Part shown: piece after piece, positions 25,477 to 63,951 of the stretch | How the letters are laid out: each line of letters begins with the position of its first letter | Position numbering within the stretch: position 1 is the stretch's first letter | DNA from: Odiellus spinosus | Lineage: Eukaryota > Arthropoda > Arachnida > Opiliones > Phalangiidae | Length of the DNA stretch: 64,000 nt | Direction of reading: 5' to 3' | Assembly (NCBI GenBank): GCA_963920705.1 | Contig: OY987236.1 | Span: forward strand, 5,876,190-5,940,189 | Program-made: the position numbers and the translations under genes | The notes under the pieces: model-generated | Told to the model about the DNA's origin: nothing | The model's database searches: none | What the model saw: the letters and a program-made list of their open reading frames with translations, nothing else

Positions 25477-28400
25477 TTAATCTCCTTCTTCTTCATCAGA
25501 ACTAAAAATCAATTCTGGTGAAGGTGGTTTATTTCTTTCCTTTTCCATTAAACCAATATCGTATTGTATCTCTTTAGCTAGTTGCGGTTCCTCCGCTAGC
25601 ATATCTTTAAGCTCATTTTTAAATTCTTTGGTGTATTCTGCTAGGAACTGCATGTAGTTTTTCATCACCGGAGTCTTTTTCACGATTGATTTTAACCCAA
25701 CGACAGCGTTAACGACTTTCCCGACTACGATAGCTTTAGCCTTTTTTCTTAGTTGCGTGTCACATTTGGGCTTTAGCCCGCATTCCTCCAAGGCATTAAT
25801 AAACGAGGAGCAATCCTTCAATTCTTCGCACAGTAATATATTTAACACGTCTGTAACGATGAATTTATTTTGATCATTCATGATTTTTTCTCTGTCGATA
25901 AACTTTCCTAGCGCGTGTTCGATTAGAGTAGAGTTTATTCTAACAAAGCGAAACTCTGGTTTAGTGTTTTCTATCATGAATTTATACAATTTCATTCGAA
26001 GGTTGAAATTCTCTTCTCCTTTTAAGGTAAAATGTTGGTCTTGGGAATCTTTTAAAGGTTCGAGAGTTTTTTCAAATCCATTTAGGAAGAATATTGTTTC
26101 TGCAAAACGTTGTACGAAGAAATTAGGATATCTTTTCGTTCCAAGATGTATGAGAAGTGATTTTGCGTAAAGCGATAGATCGAGATCCGAATTAATTATA
26201 ACATAAAGAAAGCGAAAAAATAATGATCCTTTCCATTTTAAAATATTTTCTTGTAACAATCGAGCGAAAAGAGTTAAAGCTTGGTAAGAAACAAATTTTG
26301 ACGGATGCCTAAAACAATTAGACATGATATTCAAATAAGGCTCGACGATGCTCGCATAACGATTGCAAAAATCACACAATGCAGTTAAGATGTTGATTAT
26401 TACATTAGGATCGGAAGAGGTTTTTAATTCTTGTACAAAAAGAAGCAAAGATTTTTGGGTTAGTTGTTCATCTTGAACGCATAATCTTCCCAGGCAAAGA
26501 ATAGCCATCTTCTTGATTTTATTACATTCTTTTCTGAAAGCCAAAAATATCAGATATTCTTGGGTTTTCGCAGTGACGTTTTTCGGGCTTATTTCTGATA
26601 ATATAGAATAAGTTTCTACAACTCGCAAGGCTTCAGTTTCTCTCGCATCAATTGCCTCAAAGTTTTCAACCTCAAAAAATTGGCCTAATTTAGAGTCACA
26701 CCTTTTCAAGTTAGCTTCAGCGAATCTTTCTAAATCTTTCCCATAACTTCGTTTATTTGTCAATACTGTCAACATTTGTCGTAAAGCTATTACAGTGGAG
26801 GATATTGCGACTAAAGGTACCGAAAATGCGGTAATATCTGTCTGGAAATGTTCAACTAAACTTTGTAAAGCGTTTTTGGAAAATGTTGGTGAACTGTTGC
26901 CAATAGTTTCAACTATGTTCTTAAAATTCTCATCTTCCTTTTCAATGGGGTGCTTTTTCTTTTCTCGCCACGCATATATGGCAAATTCGTAGTTTGTGTC
27001 TGGAAAGTTTTTGCAAGAAGTTAGCTGAGCTAATAACATCCACGCTACACCTTCAAAGTCGGTTGTTAATTTGTGTTGGAGCCTCATGACAAAGGGACTA
27101 CTTAGGCGACATTTATTCTTATTTACCATCTTTTGTAACATAACTTTAATATATCCTTGATAATCTTTCATGTTTGCTTGGCAAATTTTACTCAATATGA
27201 CCCAAGCTATTTGATTTTCAGTCAATATTCCATCTAATATTATTTCATCCAATTGATCCAAGCATTTTTGCTGAGCAGATTCTTCGCAGTCAAGCAGCAA
27301 TGGCAACAAATTTTGTATAAAGAGATTCTGCGCTAGTTCAGAGTCCGGGTGAGCTTTGAGAATCAAACTTATTGATTGGCACATTTCCTTTCTAATTAAA
27401 ACCGAAGGATCCGTCGCGAATTTCCCAAAAATCTTGTAATATTGGGGTTCCAGTTTCCTTTGACACATAATTCTCGTTATCAATATCAAGGTTGATTTTC
27501 GTACAAAAACTTTATCATTGTCAGCCAAATGTTTCACAATTTTTTCAAGATTCTTAAAGAGTTTTCTTTGCAAACTGATATTTTCATTAGATTGATCATT
27601 TTGCGTCAGAAAGTCTAAAATCTTGTCTCGCGATAATACGCTTAGAGCTTTAACTACGACAGTAGAAGATTTATCGTAACATCTATTCAATATTTTTTCT
27701 ATTACAAAGAGTGGCGTCGTATCAGGGAATTGTGAGATGGTTTTAATCTTGGCTTCATCTTGAAGTAAACAAGAAAGTATGTCCAAAGATATCATGCGTT
27801 GGGAAACTTCGTTTTCACTCGAATGTTTAATAGACCACTTCACAAGATCTACGAATAATTCATCTGGAAAATGGCTTATTATTTCGTAGCCCTGATGAGC
27901 CATTTTCTCTCTGCCTTCAGTTTTATCACATACACGAGCACATAATTGATGGAAGAAAATTTGGGACGGTTTTTTAACTTCTTGTCCTCCCTCGTTGACT
28001 ATTTTGACTAGGAAACGTTTAATTTGTACTAAATGATTAGAGGCTATAGGGTTTTTCTTTTCCGCAACAACATCTAGGAATTGTATCAATAAATTCTCCA
28101 TTATATACATATAAATCATTCCAGAGTGACCGTGCAATTCACAGCTTGCGATTGATTTCACGATTGAAAATGTCATGCCATTTATAGTGTGATTATTGGG
28201 CTCAATTTGATTTCCAGAATAATGCAATCCCATGCCTATAAGAGCTTTAATTAAGTCTCTTAATTCATCTTGATAATTACGGAATGATATTTTTTCAACT
28301 AGTTTGACAAGCGCATTCAGTATTTGCTTAATGAGGTGAATTTTTAAATTAACATTAAGGCAATTGGAAACTCCATAGGGAAAATGATCTTCATTTTCAT

Positions 28401-29049
28401 CGTCCATTGACAAATTTGACAATATTTCTTCCTGGAATTCTTCTTGGTCAAACCGTTTCTGTTTACCTCTCTTGACTGCTAATTTATTAGCTGCTGGTCT
28501 TTTTAAATTAACATAATTTGGAGTTATTGCTTTAACAATTTCATCTATTAAACTAGGCTGGAATATTCTAAATGCACTGTGACCTTTGACGGAGAGTAAA
28601 TTAAGATATAAAGCGCAAGCTAGTAATGATAGTTCTTTCTCAAGCACTCTTGAATTATCTATATTTCCTTTTCTTATGATTGGGTACAAGACGCACAAAA
28701 TTTTTTTTGGGTGGACGTCATTGTTCAACAAACCATCCCATAATTCATCTGCAGGTTGACTTCTATCCAAATCAGACAAACTATCTGGGAGATTCGGTGC
28801 TCGCTCCCCTTCCACTAGCAGATTATTTAATTTAACACACCACTGGTAAGCATCCAAAAGAATTTCTTTCAATATCCTGATTCGATTCCTTTCTTCTAGT
28901 TTTTTGTAGAAATCATTAACATTTTCATCAACGTCCGTGAAGGAGTTTTTCCAGAATTCCAATATTTTATCTTCATTCAAAAATTCTTGAGTTATGGGAA
29001 GTCGCTTAAAGCTGTCTATAAGACCATTGATTGTATTAGTTATTTCCAT
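25477..29049 (-). CDS. NCAPD3: Condensin II complex subunit D3
   Basis: This is a HEAT-repeat subunit of condensin II, which compacts mitotic chromosomes in the nucleus. It is a single uninterrupted frame of 1190 residues. The start ATG is followed by MEITNTINGL. Family features include an N-terminal helical region, a basic cluster (KRGKQKRF, about residue 195) in the place where homologs have a basic linker, repeated HEAT-like helix pairs, and the conserved Cnd1-type block at roughly residues 870-1030 (containing NILTALCDFCNRYASIVEPY and FRHPSKFVSYQALTLF). The tail is acidic, ending SSDEEEGD. At about 1190 residues it is shorter than the human protein (about 1498), chiefly at the C-terminus. 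The absence of introns is striking because the flanking genes have 7-12 introns. It may be a retrocopy that replaced the parent, or intron loss. NCAPD2 is the main alternative, but the fit is to D3. Confidence 0.9.
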   Translation of the reverse strand: MEITNTINGLIDSFKRLPITQEFLNEDKILEFWKNSFTDVDENVNDFYKKLEERNRIRILKEILLDAYQWCVKLNNLLVEGERAPNLPDSLSDLDRSQPADELWDGLLNNDVHPKKILCVLYPIIRKGNIDNSRVLEKELSLLACALYLNLLSVKGHSAFRIFQPSLIDEIVKAITPNYVNLKRPAANKLAVKRGKQKRFDQEEFQEEILSNLSMDDENEDHFPYGVSNCLNVNLKIHLIKQILNALVKLVEKISFRNYQDELRDLIKALIGMGLHYSGNQIEPNNHTINGMTFSIVKSIASCELHGHSGMIYMYIMENLLIQFLDVVAEKKNPIASNHLVQIKRFLVKIVNEGGQEVKKPSQIFFHQLCARVCDKTEGREKMAHQGYEIISHFPDELFVDLVKWSIKHSSENEVSQRMISLDILSCLLQDEAKIKTISQFPDTTPLFVIEKILNRCYDKSSTVVVKALSVLSRDKILDFLTQNDQSNENISLQRKLFKNLEKIVKHLADNDKVFVRKSTLILITRIMCQRKLEPQYYKIFGKFATDPSVLIRKEMCQSISLILKAHPDSELAQNLFIQNLLPLLLDCEESAQQKCLDQLDEIILDGILTENQIAWVILSKICQANMKDYQGYIKVMLQKMVNKNKCRLSSPFVMRLQHKLTTDFEGVAWMLLAQLTSCKNFPDTNYEFAIYAWREKKKHPIEKEDENFKNIVETIGNSSPTFSKNALQSLVEHFQTDITAFSVPLVAISSTVIALRQMLTVLTNKRSYGKDLERFAEANLKRCDSKLGQFFEVENFEAIDARETEALRVVETYSILSEISPKNVTAKTQEYLIFLAFRKECNKIKKMAILCLGRLCVQDEQLTQKSLLLFVQELKTSSDPNVIINILTALCDFCNRYASIVEPYLNIMSNCFRHPSKFVSYQALTLFARLLQENILKWKGSLFFRFLYVIINSDLDLSLYAKSLLIHLGTKRYPNFFVQRFAETIFFLNGFEKTLEPLKDSQDQHFTLKGEENFNLRMKLYKFMIENTKPEFRFVRINSTLIEHALGKFIDREKIMNDQNKFIVTDVLNILLCEELKDCSSFINALEECGLKPKCDTQLRKKAKAIVVGKVVNAVVGLKSIVKKTPVMKNYMQFLAEYTKEFKNELKDMLAEEPQLAKEIQYDIGLMEKERNKPPSPELIFSSDEEEGD

Positions 29050-29652
29050 AATAAACCTTCTAGAATGACAGTTATATTTTATTTATTTTGAAATTGGGCT
29101 GAAAAATTTCGTAGGCTCGTTTCACCATGACTATTCACGTGGTTATGTAGATTCAAAAATTACTTCACGAAGTTCACGTGCCAAAAGAATACAGCACTCC
29201 ATTTTCAAATCAGCCGATGTTTTCGTTTACATGCAGACGTCATCGTTCCAAGGGCAAAGGTCAATAACTCAGCGTATCAGCGCTACTCCCCGGCTACTGC
29301 AGTACTGGTACTACTGCGCAATCTCCATAAAACAAAGAAAATTAAAAATGAGTCGGCTTGTATTTTTACCGCGTGTGTGCTTTTTATCAAACGTTTTTCC
29401 GTTTTAATTCTGATGGATTTGTGCCCAAATTGGATTATATAAGGATAATTTCTTATAAAAATGTAAGTGTGACAAAATTTATTACTTGTTGAATGTTGAT
29501 CTTGTTTTTGTCTGAAAATGGATGCTTCTAAACTTTTGGCGGTTTCCCGCCCACCTTGCCATGGCAAACAACTTTAGCCCTAGTTTACCGATCCCAGTAT
29601 AGTCTCGGTCTCCATAATATTAAAAAAATATATAACCAACAAGGTTACGTTT
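29050..29652. promoter_or_regulatory. SELENON-NCAPD3 intergenic region
   Basis: This region must contain the SELENON polyadenylation site and the NCAPD3 promoter. Minus-strand AATAAA at 29478-29483 is a candidate SELENON signal. Two CACGTG hexamers (29136-29141 and 29175-29180) lie within 130 bp upstream of the NCAPD3 start codon. Confidence 0.45.
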
Positions 29653-31810: not shown

Positions 31811-33762
31811 CGTTTAAACTCTAGTAATAACGTAATTATTTTACACGTTAGTAACCAATTTAATTATTAATTACTAGTAACCTACAAATATAACCACAGC
31901 TGCTGAGCTGGCTAGTCGCCATATTTACTATTATTTTACTACTACAGCTATTATTGCGCAATATTTATGAATGAAAACTTTTGCCTGCCATCTGTTAGTC
32001 ATTCATATCTTTTTCCCGCCAAAGTTTCGCCGAAAAAATTTAAAAAGCTGAAAACATTTCCTTATAAGCGTTGTTAATTTTAATTTTTGGGGTCTGTTAA
32101 TAATTAAATAAGTAAATAATTAAAACTGTAGTTATATCAGCTGGTTTTTTTAGGTTATTGACCTATTATTTACATTGTAGTATTCGAAAGAGGGGGTTGA
32201 ATGGACTTAAGGTCTGTTTGTCTGACTCTTTATGAATGAAAAACCTTATCAAGTTCAAGGGCACGAAAAATACTGGGAAAATTTTGATTTTATTCCTTCT
32301 AATAAGTAGGTCTAACCATTTAACGCGGATGAAAGTGAATAATTATAGACTTTCTTTAATTACCGTATCTACACTGAACTGAATTTTTGGTTTTTTAGCC
32401 ACGTAGCTAATCCGGGAAAATATTAATATTAGGGTTTCAATTTAAATTACCAAGTTTTTTTTAACATATTCAGGATGATCACGCCTTCCTATTTTATCCT
32501 GTATTTTAAGATTAGCGACGCGTTTTTGTAAAATTTGCGCAAATCTTCAACGTTTAATTAGTTTAAATAATGGATGAAGTGATTTTTATATCGATTCAAT
32601 TCATTCAGGGTTGCCACAGGTCTGAGAAAACGTTTAACACCCAGGGAAATCGAAAATTGGGCATAGAAAATATTCAATCAAATATTAAGTTAATATTTAA
32701 CCTACTCTGAAACTTTATTTTGAAGTTAAAAGTGAAAGCTTCGTTGAAAAAAAGTATATGTTGGGCATGTAAAGATATCTATAACATCCGTGTTTAAAAG
32801 AGGTCCCGGAAATTAGAATTTGAGAGATGTCACTAATGAAAATACGAAATATAATTCGGGAAATTGTTGGAAAACTGGTTTTTATTTAATTTAAGCGTTT
32901 TTTTCTTATAAATTTAGGCCAATAATTTTAGCTTCCTGATTTAGGGTGTGAAAAACTACGAGTCTTAGTTATATTCGAACAAAAATAGAAATCCACGTAT
33001 AGTTTATTTTCTCTCTGTCTTAACTTTCGATCTTACACGGAAGTAGATACAAAATACCATATTTCTACTTGCGGAAGTAAAAAAACGAAAGGTGCCGCCG
33101 ACACAGAAAGAACTTATAGAATTTTGGTTGAAAATCTGAGTTTCTAATATAATAATATCACAAGTAAATCATCCTTCAAGTTTATACTGCTGGGTCGATT
33201 TTCTCAGTCCATGGTTTCACCCAAAGTATTCCGAAATTTGTACAAATAGGTTGCTAAGCTCAGTAAATTCTATCCAGAGTAAATCAGACTCGAAATCGCG
33301 ACGGCCGGGCAAGACACGATCCTTCGTTTCGTGAGAGAGAGAGTGGAGAGTTGTTGTCTAGACAGTTCAGTGCAATATTAGCATCGCCTACTTAGTTCCA
33401 ATCTCAACCGCTAGAGGCAATTTTGAATTTCATATCTCGACCGTTTAGTTTTTTATTTATTTATTTTTTTTCTCTCTTCGAGCGAAAGCTCTGACGACAA
33501 AACTTTCAGAACTTCATTCCGATCATAATATGCTTTGTTGTTGAGGCTGTGGTAATATTCGAGACAGTTTTAAAAAATACTTTCATCAAAACGTAGAAGG
33601 GGGGTTAGCTTGACTAAAGCCTGTTGATAATTCCTTCTATATTCCTGATATTATTAAGAGTAAATATTTGTGGAAAAACATTTAAAGATGGGTAAAATAA
33701 AGAAGCTAATACGGAATCTCTCTCCCTCGAGCCTTGACGTCATAAATTTGGTGGTTTAGTGG
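31811..33762. other. AT-rich intergenic DNA upstream of SELENON
   Basis: No coding sequence is recognised. The SELENON promoter should lie in the first few hundred bases above 31810. No TATA box was assigned. Confidence 0.45.
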
Positions 33763-33858
33763 AAATAAGTCACTTTAACACTTGAGATACAAATCACATG
33801 GTTTTATTTGAAAAAGCTAAAATTATTGCCGGTGTAAATTGCCGGACTTATTTACATT

Positions 33859-33901
33859 GTACGACGCGTTTCGGAGACCGATCTCCTTTTTCAAGTACGA
33901 C
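33859..33901 (-). ncRNA. Hammerhead-like motif, left arm of PLE
   Basis: Mirror copy of the motif at 36007-36049 in the opposite arm of the palindrome. Confidence 0.4.
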
Positions 33902-34026
33902 AATAATGAATTTTAGGTTTCACTATCTAACTTTATAAATTTTGACTTGGACTTTAGCCCATTTTCAAAAAACGGTAACAAAAGGGAAGGCCTATTTTTA
34001 TTTTTTTTATTTTTTTTTTATAATTT

Positions 34027-34998
34027 TTATATATCTACCAGATCAAACCAGTAATCGTTCATAAAAGTCCCCTTATCGATATTGAGCTGGCCTTGTTTTT
34101 TAATGTATAAACTTTCAATATATCGTCGTTTAAAGTAATGGGATTCATGTTTTAAAATGGATTTATCCCCCCAATTAATTTGATGTTTATTTTCCCACGC
34201 GTGGGCGGCCAAGCCATTATTCATATCTCTATTTTTAACAGCTCGAGTGTGTTCTTGAACTCTCGTATTGAGGGGTCTTTTTGTTTCACCTACGTAAGAG
34301 GCATCACAATCATTACAAGGAATATTGTAAACCACGCCCGCCGGATTCGTTTTTTTATTTCTGTTGTTAATGATATTTTTGGTTGGATTATTAAAGTAAT
34401 TTTTAAGGTTAGGGTTACGTTTATGGGCCAGATTAATATTTATTTGTTTAAGTTGCCTTTCTAATTTTTCGCTTTTATTTTTAATAAAGGGGAGGGCTAG
34501 ATAAGGTTTAGGTGCGTTATTGGGTTCCGGATTATTCTTGCATGTTTGTATATCAGATGCGGTTCTAGCCTGTTTAATTATTTTCCTAGGGAAGTTACTA
34601 TCGATAAGTTGTTTTTGGATGATGTCCTTGTCGTTTGACCATTCGGGGACAGTATATTTATTAAGCCTATGAAACATACTTCTTGCAATATTATTTTTAA
34701 TTTTAGATGATTGATAACTGCGATGATTTAAAAACCGGCCAGAATGGGTAGGTTTTTGGTAAAATTTATGTTGTATGGATGTTTGTAATCTAATTAGTTT
34801 AACATCTAAGAAATTTAATGAGTTTTTATCTTCAATTTCTAATGTAAATTGAATGTGTTTATCTCTAGAATTTAGGGTTTTAAGAAAAGGGTCAAGCAAT
34901 TTAATATTATGGTTCCACACAGCAAAGACATCATCCACATATCGCATCCAGTATGTGGGATGCGATATGTGGATGATGTCTTTGCTGTGTGGAACCAT
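34027..34998 (-). CDS. PLE polyprotein fragment: RT C-terminal part plus GIY-YIG endonuclease (left arm)
   Basis: A 323-codon frame. RT motif YVDD is at residues 20-23 (context MRYVDDVFAVWNH), supplying the catalytic Asp pair of the palm. The RT fingers and most of the palm are missing. A linker follows, then a CxxC pair (PCNDC) and the GIY-YIG-type nuclease: VVYNIP, SYVGETKR with its conserved Arg, and a downstream Glu in RRYIESLYI. The first 17 or so residues come from reading into the opposite arm and are not native. The fragment cannot encode an active reverse transcriptase. The nuclease domain is intact in frame. Confidence 0.9.
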   Translation of the reverse strand: MVPHSKDIIHISHPTYWMRYVDDVFAVWNHNIKLLDPFLKTLNSRDKHIQFTLEIEDKNSLNFLDVKLIRLQTSIQHKFYQKPTHSGRFLNHRSYQSSKIKNNIARSMFHRLNKYTVPEWSNDKDIIQKQLIDSNFPRKIIKQARTASDIQTCKNNPEPNNAPKPYLALPFIKNKSEKLERQLKQININLAHKRNPNLKNYFNNPTKNIINNRNKKTNPAGVVYNIPCNDCDASYVGETKRPLNTRVQEHTRAVKNRDMNNGLAAHAWENKHQINWGDKSILKHESHYFKRRYIESLYIKKQGQLNIDKGTFMNDYWFDLVDI

Positions 34999-35880
34999 AA
35001 TATTAAATTGCTTGACCCTTTTCTTAAAACCCTAAATTCTAGAGATAAACACATTCAATTTACATTAGAAATTGAAGATAAAAACTCATTAAATTTCTTA
35101 GATGTTAAACTAATTAGATTACAAACATCCATACAACATAAATTTTACCAAAAACCTACCCATTCTGGCCGGTTTTTAAATCATCGCAGTTATCAATCAT
35201 CTAAAATTAAAAATAATATTGCAAGAAGTATGTTTCATAGGCTTAATAAATATACTGTCCCCGAATGGTCAAACGACAAGGACATCATCCAAAAACAACT
35301 TATCGATAGTAACTTCCCTAGGAAAATAATTAAACAGGCTAGAACCGCATCTGATATACAAACATGCAAGAATAATCCGGAACCCAATAACGCACCTAAA
35401 CCTTATCTAGCCCTCCCCTTTATTAAAAATAAAAGCGAAAAATTAGAAAGGCAACTTAAACAAATAAATATTAATCTGGCCCATAAACGTAACCCTAACC
35501 TTAAAAATTACTTTAATAATCCAACCAAAAATATCATTAACAACAGAAATAAAAAAACGAATCCGGCGGGCGTGGTTTACAATATTCCTTGTAATGATTG
35601 TGATGCCTCTTACGTAGGTGAAACAAAAAGACCCCTCAATACGAGAGTTCAAGAACACACTCGAGCTGTTAAAAATAGAGATATGAATAATGGCTTGGCC
35701 GCCCACGCGTGGGAAAATAAACATCAAATTAATTGGGGGGATAAATCCATTTTAAAACATGAATCCCATTACTTTAAACGACGATATATTGAAAGTTTAT
35801 ACATTAAAAAACAAGGCCAGCTCAATATCGATAAGGGGACTTTTATGAACGATTACTGGTTTGATCTGGTAGATATATAA
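34909..35880 (+). CDS. PLE polyprotein fragment: RT C-terminal part plus GIY-YIG endonuclease (right arm)
   Basis: The mirror image of the minus-strand frame. The two 323-residue translations differ only at three residues just before MRYVDD, where each frame crosses the central spacer. The two frames overlap antisense across the centre (34909-34998). Transcription through the locus would produce a long self-complementary RNA. Confidence 0.9.
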   Translation: MVPHSKDIIHISHPVCGMRYVDDVFAVWNHNIKLLDPFLKTLNSRDKHIQFTLEIEDKNSLNFLDVKLIRLQTSIQHKFYQKPTHSGRFLNHRSYQSSKIKNNIARSMFHRLNKYTVPEWSNDKDIIQKQLIDSNFPRKIIKQARTASDIQTCKNNPEPNNAPKPYLALPFIKNKSEKLERQLKQININLAHKRNPNLKNYFNNPTKNIINNRNKKTNPAGVVYNIPCNDCDASYVGETKRPLNTRVQEHTRAVKNRDMNNGLAAHAWENKHQINWGDKSILKHESHYFKRRYIESLYIKKQGQLNIDKGTFMNDYWFDLVDI

Positions 35881-36006
35881 AAATTATAAAAAAAAAAATA
35901 AAAAAAATAAAAATAGGCCTTCCCTTTTGTTACCGTTTTTTGAAAATGGGCTAAAGTCCAAGTCAAAATTTATAAAGTTAGATAGTGAAACCTAAAATTC
36001 ATTATT

Positions 36007-36049
36007 GTCGTACTTGAAAAAGGAGATCGGTCTCCGAAACGCGTCGTAC
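36007..36049 (+). ncRNA. Hammerhead-like motif, right arm of PLE
   Basis: GTCGTAC, then CTTGAAAAA, then a perfect GGAGA-TCGG-TCTCC stem-loop, then GAAAC and GCGTCGTAC. The order (CUGANGA-like box, stem II, GAAA, stem) resembles the hammerhead ribozymes known near PLE ends. The first box departs from CUGAUGA, so cleavage activity is doubtful. Confidence 0.4.
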
Positions 36050-39000
36050 AATGTAAATAAGTCCGGCAATTTACACCGGCAATAATTTTAGCTTTTTCAA
36101 ATAAAACCATGTGATTTGTATCTCAAGTGTTAATAATTCTTTATTCGCTACCATGGTCTTCAAAATCAATCTTAAATAAGTCACTTTATTTCGATTTATC
36201 CTTTCCTTCTCGGCCCAGTAACTTTTCCGGAATTTATAAGCGTACATCACTTAATTTTCTGGGAATTTTCAGTCCTATTTTTTTTCTCTCTCTCTCGTGA
36301 CGTCAGAGCTTAGAGGCTTAACGTTAAATTATCAAAAATATTGCTTTTATAATCCCTCAAATAATTTCTATTTCAATCACCAGACGCTATATATTTTGAG
36401 GTTATATCGCTATCTTTTCCCTTTATGTTAAAAACGGTGCAATTTACATCGAGAATGCAATGAAGTAGAGCGTTTTATACTCTATAGTAGATATAACTAA
36501 TCGACTATATTTAAAGGGAGAATGAACTGATGAAACGAATCTATTATTTTATAAACTATACCACATTAAACCAAAAATTATAGTATCAGGGAATTTGAAT
36601 ATTGCAATGCACTGTCAAAGCTGAACTCAGATGTACACCGAATTCAAGAGTTTCAGATTCCTTGGTCTTGGCGCTGAAGTAGCGGGTTTAAAAGTATTAA
36701 AAGGACTTTGAGTTGGATGATCGCTTGGTCTAATTGAATGTGCCATCTGATTGGCCGAAGCGCCCTAAACTCACCGATCAGGCATACGTGTAGTTGTCAA
36801 AAATGTTCTGGTGTAGTTAATGTGTGTAAATGAAAGCGATTGGTTTCATTTCTGGCATTCTCGCTCCCTTTAGACGTAGGGGTGGGACGATATTAGCTAG
36901 CGGTTTTTGATTATTGACCCCCTAGATCGCTATTCTCGCGATTCTTCTCTCCCCGTGGTGCTCTGTTTTAAAAACGCATCCCCCCTCCTTGTCTGACGTT
37001 CACTTGGTCGACGATCTAGGCCACGCTAGGTAACCGTGCCGCCAACCCCTATCTTTTAATACCAGACACCACCTCGTCTTTACTTAGCGCATCATGAAGT
37101 TCCAGAAAAGTTTTAGCTCGCCCGCGTTCTCGGTTTCGCGGACCAACAGCCGCCTTTAATACTTCCTGGTGCTTTTTTGCTAGAATCTAGCTTCCTATAG
37201 TTCGTCTTTTAGGCTTAGCTACATCGTTGGTTCCTATACACCGTTCTATCCTGTAGGGTATAGGCTCGAAAATCACCGCGCAAATACTCGCTTTCGTACC
37301 AATACCATATCGTGTTCATTTTTGCGCGCTTGCCGGTGCTTTTTTTTTTTGATTTCACGAATTAATTTGTGTACCGGTTGATAACCATTTGGAATTACTT
37401 TTGGGAATTAACGCTCGTAATCGGATAAGATTAAAAGTGCCCTTTTTTATCACCATCTATGGTTACCATGGGTGCAAATACTACGGTAAAGGTAATTTTT
37501 AAACACTCAGTTATCGGTTTCTTTTCAAAATGGTTGGTTTTAAGATATGAAATTAATATTTAATTGGTTCGTGCTTAGGTGGTATTTGGTAATTTTAGTT
37601 TTAAAAGTTCTGTACCACAAATAATACAGATCATCTCCAATATCTTTAAAATTTCATCGACCAATTTGGTCCAAACTGTTGCCTATCCAATATTTTTGGA
37701 AATAAATTAAGGATCCGTGATAATTTTCTAAAACTTTCAATTTCGTCTTTGTAATAGAAAGGGTTCGATATGTTTAAAATGACCATCTCCTGTAAAAAGA
37801 TATCCTTGAAAAGCTTCCCTATTGGTTGTTATCGTTATTCGCTTGCTTGGTCTATTACCTTCCATATTAATCTTCATTCCAAATTTTTTAAATGGAAAAT
37901 TAAATCTACATAAAGCCTTCTTTAATTGGATTGTACGCGTAGAACAAATCTTGTCACGTGACTTAAAGCTTTGTAAAATGTAAAAAATACACCGAAACTG
38001 CTTCGGGAACTAGTTTCAAATCGATTGGGTTTGATGAAACGATAGTAAATTAGTTTATGATGATGATGTGTGGACAACGATTTGAACATCGGGTTGATTT
38101 TTACCGTTTCAAATCGTTTTGGATATCATAGTGTTACCGTATTGGGTGGCTCGAAAGTTTTTTATATGGCAAATACTTTCTAAAAATTTAGGGATCGCCC
38201 GTGTATTTTTATCCTTATATTTTGTCATCAATACTACGGGGCAATTGGTCAAGGAAAAATGATTTAGACATGGTCATGGAAAACCTAAAAAATTCAGGGA
38301 ATTTTAACTTAAACAAAAAATCGGTGGCAACCTGAAAAACTGGGATGATATATTTTAAGTTTTAGAATTAATTCAACTTTGCTCCTACTCAAAATCGCAA
38401 TTTTAGGTCGCGCGCCCAAAATAATTCTCATTATTTAGCGTTTTCCTTCCGTAAATACCGGATTTGTGGGTGCTCCCCCGTAAAGTATTTAGCAAACTAA
38501 ATCTTCCCTAAATTTCTTAAATTTCTCCCTAAATGTTTCATTGGGGCGACGTTCAATTCGGATAAAACACCACCCCCCTCGTCTTTACTTTATATATTAA
38601 TTAATTAATTTGGGGGAGAAAAGAGTTGTTTGTTTGTAAACCTTGACGCCCATTGCTCGATCGGAGTCTTCATCTTCTGGTTTGTGGCGCGGAACCGCAT
38701 TCCACCTGTTTACTAAGCGCTATTCCGGCATCCGGGTCATAGCCGAGATAGAAAACCATGTCGTCAATTTTAAAACCGAAACGCGATAGAAATAAATGAG
38801 AAAATACGCTAGAGAGAGAAAGAAATTTTTTTTGGAATTTTTCGCAACTAGAAAATAGATCAATAATTTCGTCTTAGTCCTAGATTAAAAACTTGTTTCT
38901 TCTTTTTATCTCTCTATTATAACTTCGATACATTTTTAATTAGAATTGCATCATCTAAGATCACTCAAAATTAAAATTTAGGACTTAATACTGAATTAAT

Positions 39001-42060: not shown

Positions 42061-42617
42061 CTTGATATTTGTAAAAGTTTTATAAAAGGGTGGGAATTTG
42101 AACCGAATTATTTCGTTTTAATCCCGCGTAAAGTGTACCCCAATTTTTAAAGACCCCAGGGTGGTATTGTTGGGCAGGGACTCGGTGTAAAATAAAATCG
42201 CGTAACTACTTCTTACCGTAGCTTCGTACTAGTTTGAAAATTCATTGCTAAACTCATTCAAGCTTCAAAGGGTTATTGTGTATTCGTGGTTTTATTTTGC
42301 AGAATATTTTTAAAATAAGTTTCGCGTGGTTGACCACCAATCCCAGAGACTTTCCGGGACTCTGAGATGTATTTAAATAAATAAATGGAATCCCATCAAG
42401 TAATACAAGGGAGGGTAAAATATTAAATTAATTTATTATCGAGATTTCGTTAAATTTAATTTATTTATTTATTATTAATCATTAAATCCTTGCTTCTACT
42501 AGCATATCGATATCGGTCTGTTCTACGCTATTGACGAGCTAGTTTATTGCCATTCAGCTCCATATTTAGACAAATCCATTAATAAATTGTTAAACTTCAA
42601 TATGAAGTTCAGTTAAG

Positions 42618-42938
42618 TTAAAATGATGGACAGTTAAAATGATGGACAGTTAAAATGATGGACAGTTAAAATGATGGACAGTTAAAATGATGGACAGTTA
42701 AAATGATGGACAGTTAAAATGATGGGCAGTTAAAATGATGGGCGGTTAAAATGATGGGCGGTTAAAATGATGGGCGGTTAAAATGATGGGCGGTTAAAAT
42801 GATGGGCAGTTAAAATGATGGGCAGTTAAAATGATGGGCAGTTAAAATGATGGGCAGTTAAAATGATGGACTGTTAAAATGATGGACTGTTAAAATGATG
42901 GACTGTTAAAATGATGGACTGTTAAAATGATAGACAGT
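42618..42938 (+). repeat. 16-bp tandem array, about 20 units
   Basis: The unit is CAGTTAAAATGATGGA in strict 16-bp period. Variants are blocked: GGACAG units first, then GGGCAG/GGGCGG, then GGGCAG, then GGACTG. This pattern indicates local amplification of neighbouring units. Non-coding. Confidence 0.95.
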
Positions 42939-42939
42939 T

Positions 42940-43366
42940 AAGTTGAAATGGATAGCAATTGAGTTAAAATTGATAGAAAATTAAGTTAAAATTGATAGTC
43001 AATTAAGTTAAAATTGATAGTCAATTAAGTTGAAATTGATAGGCAATTAAGTTGAAATTGATAGGCAATTAAGTTGAAATTGATAGAAAATTAAGTTGAA
43101 ATTGATAGAAAATTAAGTTGAAATTGATAGAACTTTAAGTTGAAATTGATAGAACTTTAAGTTGAAATTGATAGAAAATTAAGTTGAAATTGATAGAAAA
43201 TTAAGTTGAAATTGATAGGCAATTAAGTTGAAATTGATAGGCAATTAATTTGAAAGTGATAGAAAATTAAGTTGAAATTGATAGAAAATTAAGTTGAAAT
43301 TGATAGAAAATTAAGTTGAAATTGATAGAAAATTAAGTTGAAATTGATAGAAAATTAAGTTGAAAT
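42940..43366 (+). repeat. 22-bp tandem array, about 19 units
   Basis: The unit is AATTAAGTTGAAATTGATAG plus two variable bases (AA, GC, TC, CT). It directly abuts the 16-bp array and shares the TTAA(G/A)TT-AAA-TGAT theme, so the two probably derive from a common ancestral repeat. It ends in a T-rich tract at 43374. Confidence 0.93.
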
Positions 43367-43910
43367 TTCATCCATTTTTTTTTTTATTCTTCTTCTTTCT
43401 TTCTTTTCATCTCCCTCCTTTAAATTGCAAGCAATATTACCTTTTTAGCACCCTTAAAAGTAATATTATCACTTTCTTTATATTCCTTCAGGAGGTACGT
43501 ATCTTTCACCTCATCGAAGTGTAGACGGGAAATTTTCGCGCGTAAAAGTTTTTGGACGGAAAGTAGAACTTTTTGGGAAAGTTTTATTTTTTTTTTTTTA
43601 TTTTTATTTAGTTACATCCACCAAAATTTGTTCTATTTAACTTTTTTTTACTAGATTATGGTCGTATTTTATAGAATTTTATGATCCTCTTAGCTAGCTA
43701 GAATTATTCCTGATAGATTTCGGGCGAACGTCAAAATTTGGGTCCTTGATAATGTTTTTATTGAATTTATGACATTTTTAGTCGTAAATAATTCTGATTC
43801 TTCCTCCGAGGGACAGATCTCTAAAAGTATTTTGATCAGATTAATTTTGATTTTAATTAGACTTACATAAACGAAACTAAATAAATATTTAATTTGATGC
43901 AAAAGCTTAA

Positions 43911-56000: not shown

Positions 56001-57100
56001 TGGCTAATTTTATGTCACGTTTCTGTTCGAATTTGCTATTTTATTTACACGTAATCAAGTTTCATTTCGTATTGACTAATTTCTGATCACGTTCGCTTTT
56101 GGTATTGCCTATGTCTTATCTCATTCCATTTGATTTGGTATTGGCTAATTTCCTATCACATTCCATTTGCTATTTTCATTTATCGCGTAGCGTTTGGTTT
56201 TGGCTATTTTCATACTAAGTTCCATTTGACTTTGGTGTCCTATATCTAGCTTCGTCCGTCATTCCATTTTGGTTTTGATCTTGGCTATTTTCGTATCGCT
56301 TTCATTTCGCTTTGGTCTGACAAGCGTCACCACATTGAGACTCGACCGCGCTTTGGTGATGGTTCCTACATCCGTAGATCTCGTTAAATTTAAGCTTCAT
56401 ATTCTTTTGAAATCTCTGTCCGCGTGATTCAGAAGGCCGAGCTTCGTGTCCCGTCTCCTCCTCGTCGCCAGGAGAGGAATCGGGAACGGAAGTGAACCTA
56501 TCGGGTGGCTGCTGTCCCGTCTCCGGGAACTCCTCGTCGCTGTACATATCGCAACGGGACATGGCCTTAACCCAATTCGCGTTTTTGGGACTGATCGTCA
56601 TGTTTCCGACCAAGATCGGTATACGCTGTTCCAGGGAGGACCTGGAGTGTCTCATCCACTTTTGGCGGGGCATCGGATACCTGCTGGGCATCGACGACCG
56701 CTACAACGTTTGCGACGGCAACTACGACGAAACGGTCACGTGGTGTCGCGAGATTTTGAACGGTTGTATGAAACCCGAGTTGCTCAGCTCGGGTCCCGAG
56801 TCCTTGACCATGAGTCGGGACATTATTCGAGCCATGAACCATTTTATCGCTTTTCTCAGTTGGGAAGCCTTGGCCAGGTTCTGGTACGAGTTGTTAGACT
56901 TCCCGGTCAATTTCGCGTGCGGATTGTACCAGAAGACGGGCTATTGGCTCATGAGGTTAACTTTTAACTATTTTCTTAGGTTTCGCGCCTGTCATAATTT
57001 CTTTAATTACTTTCTACGAATAGTGATTAAGCAAACGCTAAAAAATCGCGACAAGTTCGAGAGGAAAATGAGGGCCAAATCGAGCACGGCGGCCGGTTGA
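53004..57100 (+). CDS. mpaB/rubber-oxygenase-like (DUF2236) protein 1
   Basis: The family (MPAB/Lcp catalytic domain) includes the fungal ER-bound oxygenase mpaB and bacterial latex-clearing heme oxygenases. Animal members are mostly uncharacterised. Exons: 53004-53221, 55436-55743 and 56472-57100, giving 384 residues. The ATG follows an in-frame TAA. Shared family blocks are the helix LAGLMLIVHIPSMVG, SSSMVCLFRRYLGTL, RRWYEGD, ISQRDMALTQFAFLG and HFWRGIGYLLGIDDRYN. A Ser/Thr/Lys-rich stretch of about 40 residues (140-185), absent from the paralog at 59.6-62.1 kb, is split by intron 2. The end is basic (RKMRAKSS). A heme-dependent oxygenase role is family inference, and the substrate is unknown. 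Confidence 0.85.
54836..54941 (-). repeat. Dispersed repeat copy in intron 1 of the mpaB-like gene
   Basis: Reverse-complement match to 16494-16607. Both ends are well conserved (AATACTACGTCATCACTATG; CGCGCGGTCTTTTTTGTAAA), and the centre is shorter here. Confidence 0.7.
55886..56290 (+). repeat. Degenerate tandem repeat in intron 2 of the mpaB-like gene
   Basis: Variants of TTCCATTTGATT..GGTATTGGCTAATTTCCTATCACG recur about eight times with an irregular period of 45-55 bp. Non-coding. Confidence 0.7.
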
Positions 57101-59624: not shown

Positions 59625-62084
59625 TTAACTCAGCCATTCTTCAACGATACTTAAATATCGTGAAATAGTTCGAACCATTAATCTTAACCGTACACGAAGA
59701 AGTTTAAGGTATCCATCTTCGTTACCATTATTAGCATTCCCAGAATCGTCAGTCAACCTCTTCTCGTAGAATCTTACGTCTTGGGTCGCGTTTTCGATCA
59801 AGTACTTAACCAAGGCATTGTACAAACACCGGAAGAATCCGAACTTCAAAAGGAAACCGTAAACCAAACGACCCAGACCGTAACCCAATCTATCGTAAAG
59901 ATCCATCTTGACGTCATGATGTATTCCCATAGTATCCAATTGGAAAGCGATCATGGCGCGCCATCGGAGGATTCGCAAGAAACTGGACATGGACTGAACT
60001 ATTCCTTGACTCATCTCGATCGATTTAGGTGACGCGTTTTGTACCGAGTGCGCGTAAATTTGTTCCGAGATTTCTCGACAATTAGTCAAAGTTTCATCCC
60101 AATTGTCCGTCACTATGTTGAACCGATCCTCCGTTCCCAGGAGGTGGGCTACGAAACGCCAGAAATGTCCCAAACATTGCAAATCTTCACGCGTACACCA
60201 AACACCCATCTTCTTGGGGTACAGTACCAAAAACCCCAAGAAAGCGAATTGGGTCATTGCCATATCGTACTGGGAGATACGTAGTTGGCTTCCTTCGCGG
60301 TAATTGGCCACGGTGGAGTGTTGGCGACGTACTTTTCGGATTGATTCACGGGCTTCCGATTGCTCGTTAACGATATCGCCTTCGTACCATTTTCGGACAT
60401 CCGATAAAGTTTTCAAGTATCGTCGCAGGAGAAGAACGGTGCTGGAAGATTTGCCAGTGTAGGCTAAGGTCTTGAAGATCGTCGGGATGGTTACCAGGAA
60501 TGTCAAGCCCATTAAATGGCCGAATAAAATGCTGTAGTCGGAATAATTTTAAGGAATAAATCATTAATAATCTCGTTGTCGAAATTATACGCTCTAATCC
60601 GTTTAAAGGGATAGTGAACTCCCGAGGAATGTGATTTACGGATAAAACATTTTTAAAGGTCTCGTTAATTTACAAAATACGCAGTAGCTATATGATCGAA
60701 CTCTCTAATAAATAGGCCTAATCCAAATTTAAACTAGAAATCAATTTAAAACTTATCTGGAAAATAGGCTTAGCTGGATTCATTAAGATCCTGAATTTCT
60801 TCCCATTAAAGTGTTAGCGACCAATCGAATGTTCTTAGAAGTATCGTGGAAATCTTGCCTTAACGACTTGCATTTTCTCATTGGTCGCTGACCATTCAAA
60901 GGGAAGAAATTCAGTATCTCCATGAATCCAGCTAAGCCTATTTTTCGGGTAAGTTTTAAATTTATTTCTAGTTTAATATTGATTTGTAAATTATTTTACT
61001 GTTGGATTAGGCATATTTAAACGATAAGAAATTTATAAAAATCGCTTGTATTAGGTTGCATTCTCCATTTAAAGAATATCATAAATACATTTTTATGAGT
61101 TACATAATTTTATTCATTTCAGTATCTCTTTTAGGAAATACATTCTAATATAAATATAAAACTCTGCTATTTTTGTTTGCTTAAAATCTATTCCCATCTT
61201 TTCTTAATAAGGATACCGCTTATGTTTAAAAAAACTTCATCTTAAGGAAAAAAAAGTCACGCAGCCAGCCTCGAGTTATCCGCTTCCTGGTTTTATATCC
61301 GAATTCATTTTATATTAGAAATTTGAAAAGAAAAAATAGAAAAATCGAAAAATAACACCAAATAGTACGCAAAATTTGAACCAATTTCAAAATCTAATTG
61401 GAAGCGCTTAAAGGAAAGAAATCACGACAAAAATTGATGGAAGTTCAATAAAAAGTTCAAAATTAGACAGGTCAAAATCGGTCTACAAATAAATTAAAGG
61501 GAGAATGCAACCTAAAAACAAATGATTTTTTATCGATTCCTTATCGTTTAAATAGGCCTAATCCAACAGTTAAAAAATTTACAAACCAGTATTAAACTAG
61601 AAATAAATTTAAACCTTACCATCAAAATAGGCTTAGCTGAACTCCTCATATCAGGACTAGAGACTTTGATCTGTGGCTCTTGTGTGGGGAATGCAGGATC
61701 TCCATGAATCCAGGATCTCCATGAATCCAGCTAAGCCTATTTTCCTGGTAAGTTTTAAATTGATTTCTAGTTCAATATTGGTTTTTATTTATTTATTTAT
61801 TTACTTAAACGATAATAAAAAATCACTTGTTGTTCGGTGCATTCTCCGTTTACTTTACCGTATAGGGAACCCTTTAAAGATCAGGAAAAATAACACCTTC
61901 ATCCCTTTAAAATGCCCAAGGTGAAAAATAAAAATAAAATTCAAATTTGTATACTTGCTTACCTAGCAAAATGTTGATGATAAAGTTTTTTGGCCCGTTC
62001 TATTTTCTTGACGTCTAACCAAACTGGATTTCCGGAATTACCAGAGTCTCCTGGTACCGTAATTCCACTTTTAATTATTTCCAT
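59625..62084 (-). CDS. mpaB/rubber-oxygenase-like (DUF2236) protein 2
   Basis: Minus-strand exons 62084-61963 and 60531-59625 give 342 residues. It is a paralog of the gene at 53004-57100. The first exon ends HQHFA in phase 2 and the next starts ILFGHLMGLTFLV, the same position and phase as intron 1 of the other copy. Shared blocks are SSSTVLLLRRYLKTL, RKWYEGD, ISQYDMAMTQFAFLG, HFWRFVAHLLGTEDRFN and NCREI. It lacks the other copy's second intron and Ser/Thr-rich insert and has a longer C-terminal tail of about 35 residues (LRVRLRLMVRTISRYLS). The two genes are tail-to-tail, consistent with an inverted tandem duplication. Two TTAA-site MITEs lie in its intron. Confidence 0.85.
60607..61068. 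mobile_element. TTAA-site MITE, family B copy 4
   Basis: This 462-bp element is flanked by TTAA (60603-60606 and 61069-61072) inside the intron of mpaB-like gene 2. The ends are AGGGATAGTG and GCATTCTCCAT. Confidence 0.82.
61498..61849. mobile_element. TTAA-site MITE, family B copy 5
   Basis: This 352-bp element has left flank TTAA (61494-61497) and right flank TTAC, one mutation away. The ends are AGGGAGAATGCAACCTAA and GTGCATTCTCCGT. The centre is rearranged, with CAGGATCTCCATGAATC in direct duplication at about 61691-61725. Confidence 0.8.
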
Positions 62085-62510
62085 TATTAACGAGCGAGTT
62101 ACTCAAATTGACAAATATTATCTTAATATCTTCTAATTTTTTCGTGTGGTAGAATTGGTTATTATTGGGTTATAGTTTAATTGTAATCCTCGTCATTTCA
62201 TGGCCGTTTATCTCAATTTTCACGATTGGATTTTCGATAGAAAGTTGTAGCGACGATATTATAATTCAAAAGCGCGTAATTTTATTTAAATTTACTAAAT
62301 ATTAGTAAATATTGACGACATACTTATTTACACGCCGTACTAAGGATTTGAAATAATTATAAAGCAAAAACCGATTAAATAAATAGCTATAATAGTTAAA
62401 GCGAAATCATATCGCTTTGTAGTAAAATTTTATTGCCCGAGAATTAGAACAGATGTAATAATTTAATTTTGGTAGCGCAGAATTTGAATCACAAAACTTT
62501 TTTAAATCTA

Positions 62511-62866
62511 AATAATGGCGCGAAACTTTGTAAAATCATAATAATGGCGCGAAACTTTGTAAAAATCATAATAATGGCGCGAAACTTCGTAAAATTAGAA
62601 TAATGGCGCGAAACTTCGTAAAATCATAATGACGCGAAACTTCGTAAAATTAGAATAATGGCGCGAAACTTCATAAAATCAGAATAATGGCGCGAAACCT
62701 CGTAAAATCAGAATAATGGCGCGAAACCTCGAAAAATCAGAATAATGGCGCGAAACTTCGTAAAATCGGAATAATGGCGCGAAACTTCGTAAAATCGGAA
62801 TAATGGCGCGAAACTTTGTAAAATCGGAATAATGGCGCGAAACTTCGTAATATCAGAATAATGGCT
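62511..62866 (+). repeat. 29-bp tandem array, about 12 units
   Basis: The unit is AATAATGGCGCGAAACTTCG followed by TAAAATCAG. One unit is shortened (AATGACGCG, near 62627). A GCGCG is present in almost every unit, so CpG-type sites recur at regular spacing. Confidence 0.93.
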
Positions 62867-63671
62867 ATTAATTAGTAAAATCGACCAAATGGTGGATGAT
62901 TTAAAAGTTAACTTTTGAAACCGAACCACAACACTGCAATGTTGATAATATGAATTAGCACATTATGAAGTTGAAATATATAGCACCGAAAAAATATTTA
63001 AAACGAATTAAAACTAAACCGAATTAAAATTTTAATTTTATTTAATTTATCCGAAAAAACCTTTAGCTTGAAAATGTTCGATTCTAAGGTATTTTAAATC
63101 CATGATTAGGTCCGTTGTGAGTCCGGAACTGTTCTGTTCCTTTTTCAACCCACTAGCACTTTCACTCGGCCGCCCGTTTCAACATTTTCTCCTCGTTTCA
63201 TTCACGAAAAAATCAAGAATAGTAGTAGACCCGGAAAAAAGTTTACCCCGCAGTTTTTTTCGCTATTTCCCTATATTTATATCCTACAATTCCAGCCCCA
63301 AAAATAACGGTATAAAGAAAACGGGGGGACCGTGATAATTTCCCCCACACCGCTTGTTCTTAACTTTAAACAGATATTTTTATTTTCAAATTAAAGGTGA
63401 AGTAACGTTTAAAAATCGTGTTATTAGATTAAATACTTGTACAATAGTTAATTTTAAACGTGCCAATTAAGTTCTACCCATCGAGAAATATAGTTTCGTT
63501 TCGTCTGCTCTACTTATACTCAATGTAGTACTATCGACAGTATATTCTCAATAGGGAGAGAGATGGAACAACTCTGAAATTCATGTGCTTGATCGTCTAG
63601 CGGACGAAAGTCCAGGGGTCAGGCTAATTAACAAAACCACACGCTTTGTCTGCCGAGGTTTAGAAATTAGA
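62867..63671. other. AT-rich DNA without recognised features
   Basis: I see no gene, RNA or repeat in this stretch. Confidence 0.4.
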
Positions 63672-63951
63672 CGAGGCTTAGAGAGTAGCCGAGGCTTAGA
63701 GAGTAGCCGAGGCTTAGAGAGTAGCCGAGGCTTAGAGAGTAGCCGAGGCTTAGAGAGTAGCCGAGGCTTAGAGAGTAGCCGAGGCTTAGAGAGTAGCCGA
63801 GGCTTAGAGAGTAGCCGAGGCTTAGAAAGTAGCCGAGGCTTAGAGAGTAGCCGAGGCTTAGAGAGTAGCCGAGGCTTAGAGAGTAGCCGAGGCTTAGAGA
63901 GTAGCCGAGGCTTAGAGAGTAGCCGAGGCTTAGAGAGTAGCCGAGGCTTAG
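63672..63951 (+). repeat. 18-bp tandem array, about 15.5 units
   Basis: The unit is CGAGGCTTAGAGAGTAGC, nearly invariant (one unit has GAAAGTAGC). Because 18 is divisible by three and the unit lacks stops, 130-codon frames stay open on both strands (repeating GLESSR on plus and SKPRLL on minus). These are artefacts of the repeat rather than genes. Confidence 0.95.

What the first reader, a model, noticed from the sequence alone, without database searches (positions are those of the whole stretch)
33763..36188. Near-perfect 2.4-kb palindrome of a Penelope-like element with 15-bp TSD
Two mirror copies truncated at exactly the same RT position, just upstream of YVDD, are joined by 8 bp inside one target duplication. 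This implies a single insertion of a snap-back or template-switched product. The palindrome would extrude as a cruciform and its transcript would be long dsRNA, a potential source of siRNA against the family.
Basis: partly seen in the sequence, partly recalled or inferred. Interest (0 to 1): 0.8.

Follow-up and report, generated by a model that had tools for sequence, protein, structure and literature searches.

The report
Palindromic insertion of a Penelope retroelement
A jumping gene of the Penelope type has inserted as two mirror-image copies joined head to head, a shape that recurs across this genome and looks like the product of copying from both cut ends of the target DNA at once.

Summary
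The palindrome is real: 1,175-bp arms without substitutions (one 1-nt homopolymer difference), an 8-bp asymmetric centre and an exact 15-bp target duplication. It is not unique. Among 129 scored Penelope protein matches in the assembly, neighbours within 10 kb on opposite strands are head-to-head in 19 of 19 cases. Of 19 inverted pairs whose outer ends I measured, 15 have a usable 9-15 bp target duplication; in all 15 exactly one arm carries an extra 32-47 bp 'tail', here the ORF start. One-sided tails are known for Penelope elements; two RT start sites matching the tail, and extension of both target strands, are known in vitro for an Anolis element. Here the spacer is native sequence of the arm WITHOUT tail, so neither arm can be a plain snap-back copy of the other; two primings are needed. 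I favour two-sided target-primed reverse transcription with the cDNAs joined near the same template position. Arms agree within about 46 nt in 11 of 18 pairs (shuffled mean 1.7), but four further centres looked asymmetric. siRNA and cruciform roles are untested. A new member of a known kind; the interest is mechanistic.

The parts
33763..33777 (.). left target-site duplication AAATAAGTCACTTTA (its last TTA overlaps the element end)
33775..34949 (-). left arm: 5'-truncated Penelope copy, sense on the - strand, no tail; its cDNA would start 40 nt inside the RNA relative to the tail arm, at UAA matching the TTA of the target (inference)
34950..34957 (-). 8-nt asymmetric centre; native continuation (CACATACT, sense) of the left, no-tail arm
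   Evidence: L035 reads CACATACTGGATGCG; L036 differs by one base
34958..36133 (+). right arm: second copy, sense on the + strand, without substitutions against the left arm
   Evidence: (0 substitutions in 1157 ungapped columns)
36134..36173 (+). tail, present on this arm only: element sequence running into the first codons of the ORF, ending ..AAAATCAATCTT as in five relatives (L035 at 4814, L036, L038, L039, L040); the next 0-4 bases of target can also match the native sequence, so the end is known to within 4 nt
36174..36188 (.). right target-site duplication
34958..35880 (+). ORF remnant: end of the RT from RYVDD, then the GIY-YIG-type endonuclease (35569-35673 matches PF01541 weakly)
   Evidence: E 0.016, 16 bits, below the cut-off of 22.6
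34027..34949 (-). mirror ORF remnant of the left arm

Best explanation
This is one insertion of an endonuclease-bearing Penelope-like retrotransposon made by two-sided target-primed reverse transcription. The element's protein cut both target strands about 15 bp apart. Each of the two 3' ends primed reverse transcription on element RNA: one at the outer start site (giving the tail), the other 40 nt further in (no tail, with TTA/UAA pairing). Both antisense cDNAs grew to just upstream of the YVDD codons and stopped within 8-10 nt of each other. Their 3' ends were then joined by annealing of 0-2 nt (GG/CC) or by an end-to-end template jump of the RT from one cDNA onto the other, and filled in. 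Shown here: the two different outer ends, the single TSD, the arm identity, the native spacer of the no-tail arm, and recurrence. Shown elsewhere in vitro for an Anolis element (PMC11167929): cleavage and extension of both strands, and two internal start sites that correspond to the tail. Inferred: that each target end used a different start site, that both cDNAs used the same RNA, and the joining step.
For: Exactly one arm carries the extra 32-47 bp in 15 of 15 pairs with a usable TSD (19 examined). Neighbouring opposite-strand Penelope matches within 10 kb: 19 head-to-head, 0 tail-to-tail (from the 129 matches scored out of 766 candidates). In the window and five relatives the tail ends at ..CAATCTT (6 tails; in 4 of them the target continues with 3-4 bases that match the native AAAT, which would fit priming by the target end), whereas 6 no-tail ends lie at differing places within TTAATAATTCTTTAT. 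The spacer is native to the no-tail arm in the window and in C15:15351343 (L039: 20 nt in common with native L035 before it turns). The junctions with known native sequence show 0-4 nt of homology (my reading). Arm lengths agree within 46 nt in 11 of 18 pairs, shuffled mean 1.7, 0 of 20,000 shuffles reaching 11 (approximate lengths, threshold set after seeing the data). The arms share 6 variants absent from both nearest relatives. Papers: PMC11167929 (abstract and main text read), PMC3846280 (passages and Discussion read).
Against: Independent cDNAs should differ in length, so equal arms need an added assumption (one shared RNA, or a jump to the other cDNA's end). In C17 the spacer belongs to the tail arm, and probably so in C274, so no fixed order of the two cDNAs holds. 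Not all pairs are symmetric: 7 of the 18 differ by more than 46 nt, and four further centres fetched (C8, C7:12442210, C9, C225; L060, L061, L062, L064) showed no symmetric centre, which would make it 11 of 22. If the window's source RNA had CTC, as in L035, there is no homology at the centre. Four of 19 pairs (L037, L043, C169, C11b) show no usable TSD; for C11b the script gave a 10-bp match 60 nt out, which I set aside because its flank is repeated. Two of the 15 TSDs (L042, L052) are only 9 bp. A hybrid of two primings plus a snap-back is not excluded.
Confidence: 0.68

Rival explanations
1. Snap-back: a single cDNA folds on its 3' end with an 8-nt loop and copies itself back, and the product is inserted.
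For: Nearly equal arms, loops of 8 and 10 nt, 0-3 nt of pairing at the turn (window and L039); no substitutions between the arms.
Against: The loop is native to the no-tail arm, so that arm would be the template, yet the copy has 40 bp more at its outer end. Centres of 0 and 1 nt (L040, L057) are too small for a hairpin turn. A 7-bp hairpin with a 10-nt loop was available in the same sequence (CCACATA..TATGTGG, read) and was not used.
Confidence: 0.15
2. Self-priming on an antisense RNA template, as proposed for A. vaga Penelope (PMC3846280).
For: Explains head-to-head orientation and palindromic centres.
Against: Target-primed copying of such a hairpin would put the native loop in the opposite orientation to that seen here (my derivation from the sequences). 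It does not by itself explain the one-sided tail.
Confidence: 0.06
3. The RNA itself was palindromic, transcribed from an older palindromic copy.
For: L039 arms share a private inverted RT segment, so rearranged templates may exist.
Against: No other copy among the scored candidates carries the window's centre. A fixed one-sided tail is not expected from it (inference).
Confidence: 0.05
4. Assembly or library fold-back artefact.
For: Palindromes are prone to such errors; reads were not available.
Against: The flanks differ and each is found once in the assembly. There is a TSD and a one-sided tail, and the same pattern at 15 of 19 pairs.
Confidence: 0.03
5. Inversion, duplication or gene conversion after an ordinary insertion.
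For: Arm identity could be kept by conversion between palindrome arms.
Against: The TSD encloses both arms, and the outer ends follow the tail / no-tail pattern at the 15 measured loci with a usable TSD.
Confidence: 0.03

Closest known systems
Adineta vaga Penelope families (PMC3846280)
   Same: Inverted head-to-head terminal repeats, a 31-bp tail on one of the inverted repeats, palindromes at the inverted junction, TSDs of 8, 9 and 10 bp in the passages I saw
   Different: In the passages and Discussion I read, the inverted repeats are mostly pLTRs of about 200 bp; here symmetric arms run from about 0.1 to about 3 kb per arm (approximate). They infer self-priming, probably on an antisense template.
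Poseidon of Anolis carolinensis, PAc (PMC11167929)
   Same: Two internal RT start sites that explain the tail; both target strands cut and extended
   Different: An in vitro study of extension products; in the abstract and main text I read, head-to-head palindromes are not derived from it and later steps are left open. PAc is described as tandem repeats. Its main RT start lies 111-118 bp into the ORF; here the tail ends about 21 nt into it.
LINE-1 twin priming (recalled, no call)
   Same: Second target strand also primes on the element RNA, giving an inversion inside one TSD
   Different: In LINE-1 the two halves come from different parts of the RNA; here both arms hold the same part.

Membership tests
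Penelope-like elements with endonuclease | Reverse transcriptase domain | tested here: met
   Relative L035 (97% identical DNA over the arm) has PF00078 RVT_1, E 2e-08, above cut-off; the window arms keep only RYVDD onward and have no RVT_1 match of their own
Penelope-like elements with endonuclease | GIY-YIG endonuclease C-terminal to the RT in the same ORF | tested here: inconclusive
   PF01541 at E 0.016 (window) and 0.38 (L035), both below the curated cut-off; motif VVYNIPC..ASYVGETKRPLNTR read by eye
Penelope-like elements with endonuclease | pLTR running into the ORF start, with an optional tail of about 30-40 bp | tested here: met
Penelope-like elements with endonuclease | Target-site duplication | tested here: met
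   15 bp here; 9-15 bp in 15 of 19 pairs
Penelope-like elements with endonuclease | Head-to-head inverted arrangement of copies | tested here: met
   19 head-to-head, 0 tail-to-tail, 10 same-strand neighbours within 10 kb among 129 scored matches
Penelope-like elements with endonuclease | Hammerhead ribozyme in the pLTR | tested here: inconclusive
   No Rfam hammerhead match up to E 5 at 33700-36250; relatives were not scanned; a degenerate core (GTACTTGAAAAAGGAG..CTCCGAAACGCGTCGTAC) is my reading only
Penelope-like elements with endonuclease | RT phylogenetic placement | not tested
   no tree built

The most novel reading that the evidence does not exclude
Palindromes are the default product of Penelope integration, not accidents: a dimeric RNP primes both target strands on one RNA at two start sites about 35 nt apart, both polymerases run to the same template end, and the cDNAs are joined head-to-head. 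In two short copies (L041, L052) the centre is GTAC at the presumed ribozyme cut site, so ribozyme cleavage might supply self-complementary cDNA ends for the join.
Probability: 0.35. Interest if true: 0.75.

Novelty: new member of a known kind. Interest (0 to 1): 0.5.

Why it matters
How Penelope-like elements integrate is largely unknown (PMC11167929 says so). This locus, with its relatives in one long-contig assembly, separates two models: the orientation of the 8-nt spacer together with the one-sided tail argues against a plain snap-back and for priming from both target ends. It links the in vitro finding of two start sites and two-strand extension to a genomic product. It also shows how kilobase-size, near-perfect inverted repeats, potentially unstable and dsRNA-forming, can be put into a genome.

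Tried and rejected
Rfam matches at the centre are miRNA models hitting the hairpin, all below gathering scores: rejected. I considered snap-back of the tail cDNA and of the no-tail cDNA: each contradicts either the spacer orientation or the tail. I looked for the private L039 junction elsewhere: the full 219 bases match only the two arms of L039 at 100%; one gapped 72% match (C7, within L036) I take to be another junction. I looked for an empty allele: none, each flank is found once. Native sequence at the centre of C14:1810376 could not be had, since the search found only its own two arms. At C274 it was judged only from 78% relatives, so the side of its spacer is uncertain.

What was left out. 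The 19 pairs are those whose outer ends I held: ten reached with the window's arm or its 3' end as query and nine from the protein search. Fetched but not measured: L044, L045, L046 and L047, which hold inverted pieces but look nested or decayed, and the C113 cluster in L034/L035. Of the 19 head-to-head pairs, seven were not measured at their outer ends (C113, C136, C225, C33:327005, C7:12441462, C8:11241369, C9). The 18 pairs leave out L043 (unclear centre) and these seven. For four of the seven the centre was fetched: L060, L062 and L064 gave no inverted match and L061 only 50-bp arms 900 bases apart; counted as asymmetric they would make 11 of 22.

Full report
Observation. The window holds an inverted repeat with arms 33775-34949 and 34958-36133. 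Between the arms there is no mismatch and one 1-nt gap in a homopolymer run (repeat search). The centre is 8 nt, AGTATGTG. The exact 15-bp repeat AAATAAGTCACTTTA stands at both ends. The central 128 nt fold to a single 60-bp stem with an 8-nt loop (0 of 200 shuffles fold as well). Each arm has the same open frame, from RYVDD to the end of a GIY-YIG-like domain.

What it is. In the same assembly (443 Mb, 286 contigs) the nearest relatives are 96-97% identical over the arm. One of them, in L035, keeps a 536-aa frame with an RVT_1 match (E 2e-08) and a weak GIY-YIG match below cut-off. L035 also holds a pLTR that runs into an ORF start, ATGGTCTTCAAAATCAATCTT (2121 onwards). The right arm of the window ends with these same bases (36134-36173); the left arm lacks them. 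In the window and in five relatives (L035 at 4814, L036, L038, L039, L040) the tail ends at ..CAATCTT; in four of these six (window, L035, L036, L040) the next 3-4 target bases also match the native AAAT, so the end is known to within 4 nt. Six arms without tail (window, L034, L036, L038, L039, L040) end at differing places within TTAATAATTCTTTAT. A tail on one of two inverted repeats is described for Adineta vaga Penelope (PMC3846280; passages, and Discussion). It is explained for Anolis Poseidon by two adjacent internal RT start sites, with cleavage and extension of both target strands in vitro (PMC11167929; abstract and main text).

It is not alone. The protein search scored 129 of 766 candidates (a lower bound). 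Among these, adjacent opposite-strand pairs within 10 kb are head-to-head in 19 cases and tail-to-tail in none; 10 adjacent pairs are same-strand. I measured outer ends for 19 inverted pairs: ten reached with the window's arm or its 3' end as query, the window included, and nine from the protein search. Fifteen have a usable TSD of 9-15 bp (two of them only 9 bp). In those 15 exactly one side has 32-47 bp between TSD and symmetric arm, and the other side between -6 and +2. The four others are L037, L043 and C169 (no TSD found) and C11b (a 10-bp match 60 nt out, set aside because the flank is repeated). CCATGG, the ORF-start mark, stands on exactly one side in 16 of 19, the four included, and on neither in C274, C11 and C5, which have the extra length without that word.

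Centres. Small asymmetric centres are common: 10 nt in L039, 0 in L040, GTAC shared by both arms in L041 and L052, 13 in L042; 15, 4, 1, 29 and 46 nt in L055, L056, L057, L054 and L066. Other pairs have a longer one-sided middle (L058, L059, L061, L063, L065; L036-L038), and L060, L062 and L064 showed no inverted match in the stretch fetched. Using approximate arm lengths for 18 pairs, 11 agree within 46 nt; shuffled partners give 1.7 on average and at most 8 in 20,000 shuffles. The sample was not random, and the limit was set after seeing the data (see Tried and rejected).

Why not a snap-back. Relatives read ..CACATACTGGATGCG (L035) or ..CCCACAAACTGGATGCG (L036) at the truncation point. In the window this native continuation belongs to the left arm, the one without tail. 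A cDNA that folded back there would be the no-tail one, and its copy could not gain 40 bp of correct tail. A fold-back of the tail cDNA would have left the native loop in the other orientation. L039 shows the same side (native for 20 nt, turning after CTT), while C17 shows a 46-nt spacer native to its tail arm and C274 probably 4 nt of its tail arm. So two primings are needed here, and either cDNA may be the longer one.

Mechanism proposed. Both target strands are cut. Each 3' end primes on the RNA, one at the outer start (tail), one about 30-47 nt further in, sometimes with a few bases of target-RNA pairing (TTA here). Both cDNAs stop at nearly the same template position and their ends are joined by 0-4 nt of homology or by a template jump. 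Shown: ends, TSD, spacer side, recurrence. Inferred: one shared RNA, the jump. The arms share six variants not in the two nearest relatives and have no substitutions between them, consistent with one source RNA and a recent insertion, or with later conversion between arms.

Artefact. Each flank occurs once in the assembly and no empty allele was found. A fold-back artefact would not make a TSD or a one-sided tail. Reads were not available.

Known or new. Head-to-head inverted Penelope copies, tails and palindromic junctions are in print (PMC3846280). The explanation given there is self-priming, probably on an antisense template. I searched the paper library for Penelope-like elements with inverted and target site duplication, pLTR and inverted orientation, hammerhead ribozyme, palindromes, both-strand target priming, head-to-head and twin priming. 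Among the listed titles and abstract openings I found none that derives the palindromes from priming at both target ends; only the two named papers were opened, and most subscription papers are not held. The locus is therefore a new, large and clean member of a known kind, with a useful argument about mechanism. The siRNA and cruciform ideas remain untested.

Noticed in passing
L041 centre about 640-659 (C7:1278062-1278271) and L052 centre about 790-807 (C5:10655676 region): Two short inverted pairs at different sites share the same centre CATTTGTACAAATG, i.e. both arms begin at GTAC, which is where a hammerhead ribozyme of the pLTR would cut (my reading, no Rfam scan of these loci).
   Followed up: partly
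L039:544-1535 (C15:15351343-15352334): 959-bp palindrome in which both arms carry the same private junction between the EN end and an inverted RT segment; one search found the full junction only in these two arms.
   Followed up: yes
L055 (C14:1810376), L054 (C5:18263737): Centres of very large Penelope palindromes, about 2.5 and 3.1 kb per arm (approximate), with long open frames (775 and 853 aa) in both arms.
   Followed up: partly
window 56411-57100 (+) and 59625-60548 (-): Two frames in opposite orientation that look related by eye; the second matches PF09995 (MPAB_Lcp_cat, E 5.6e-07), the first matches nothing at E 0.01.
   Followed up: no
window 25477-29082 (-): 1201-aa open frame with condensin-subunit matches (Cnd1, Cnd3), apparently a host gene in one long frame.
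   Followed up: no
window 42616-43367, 62504-62865, 63652-63951: Tandem arrays (16-bp x20, 22-bp x20, 29-bp x12.6, 18-bp x16.7); 42-44 kb also has an unusual GC skew of 0.24.
   Followed up: no
L035:4844-5326: A frame with a BIR domain (inhibitor of apoptosis, E 3.3e-18) begins beside a Penelope 3' end on C113.
   Followed up: no
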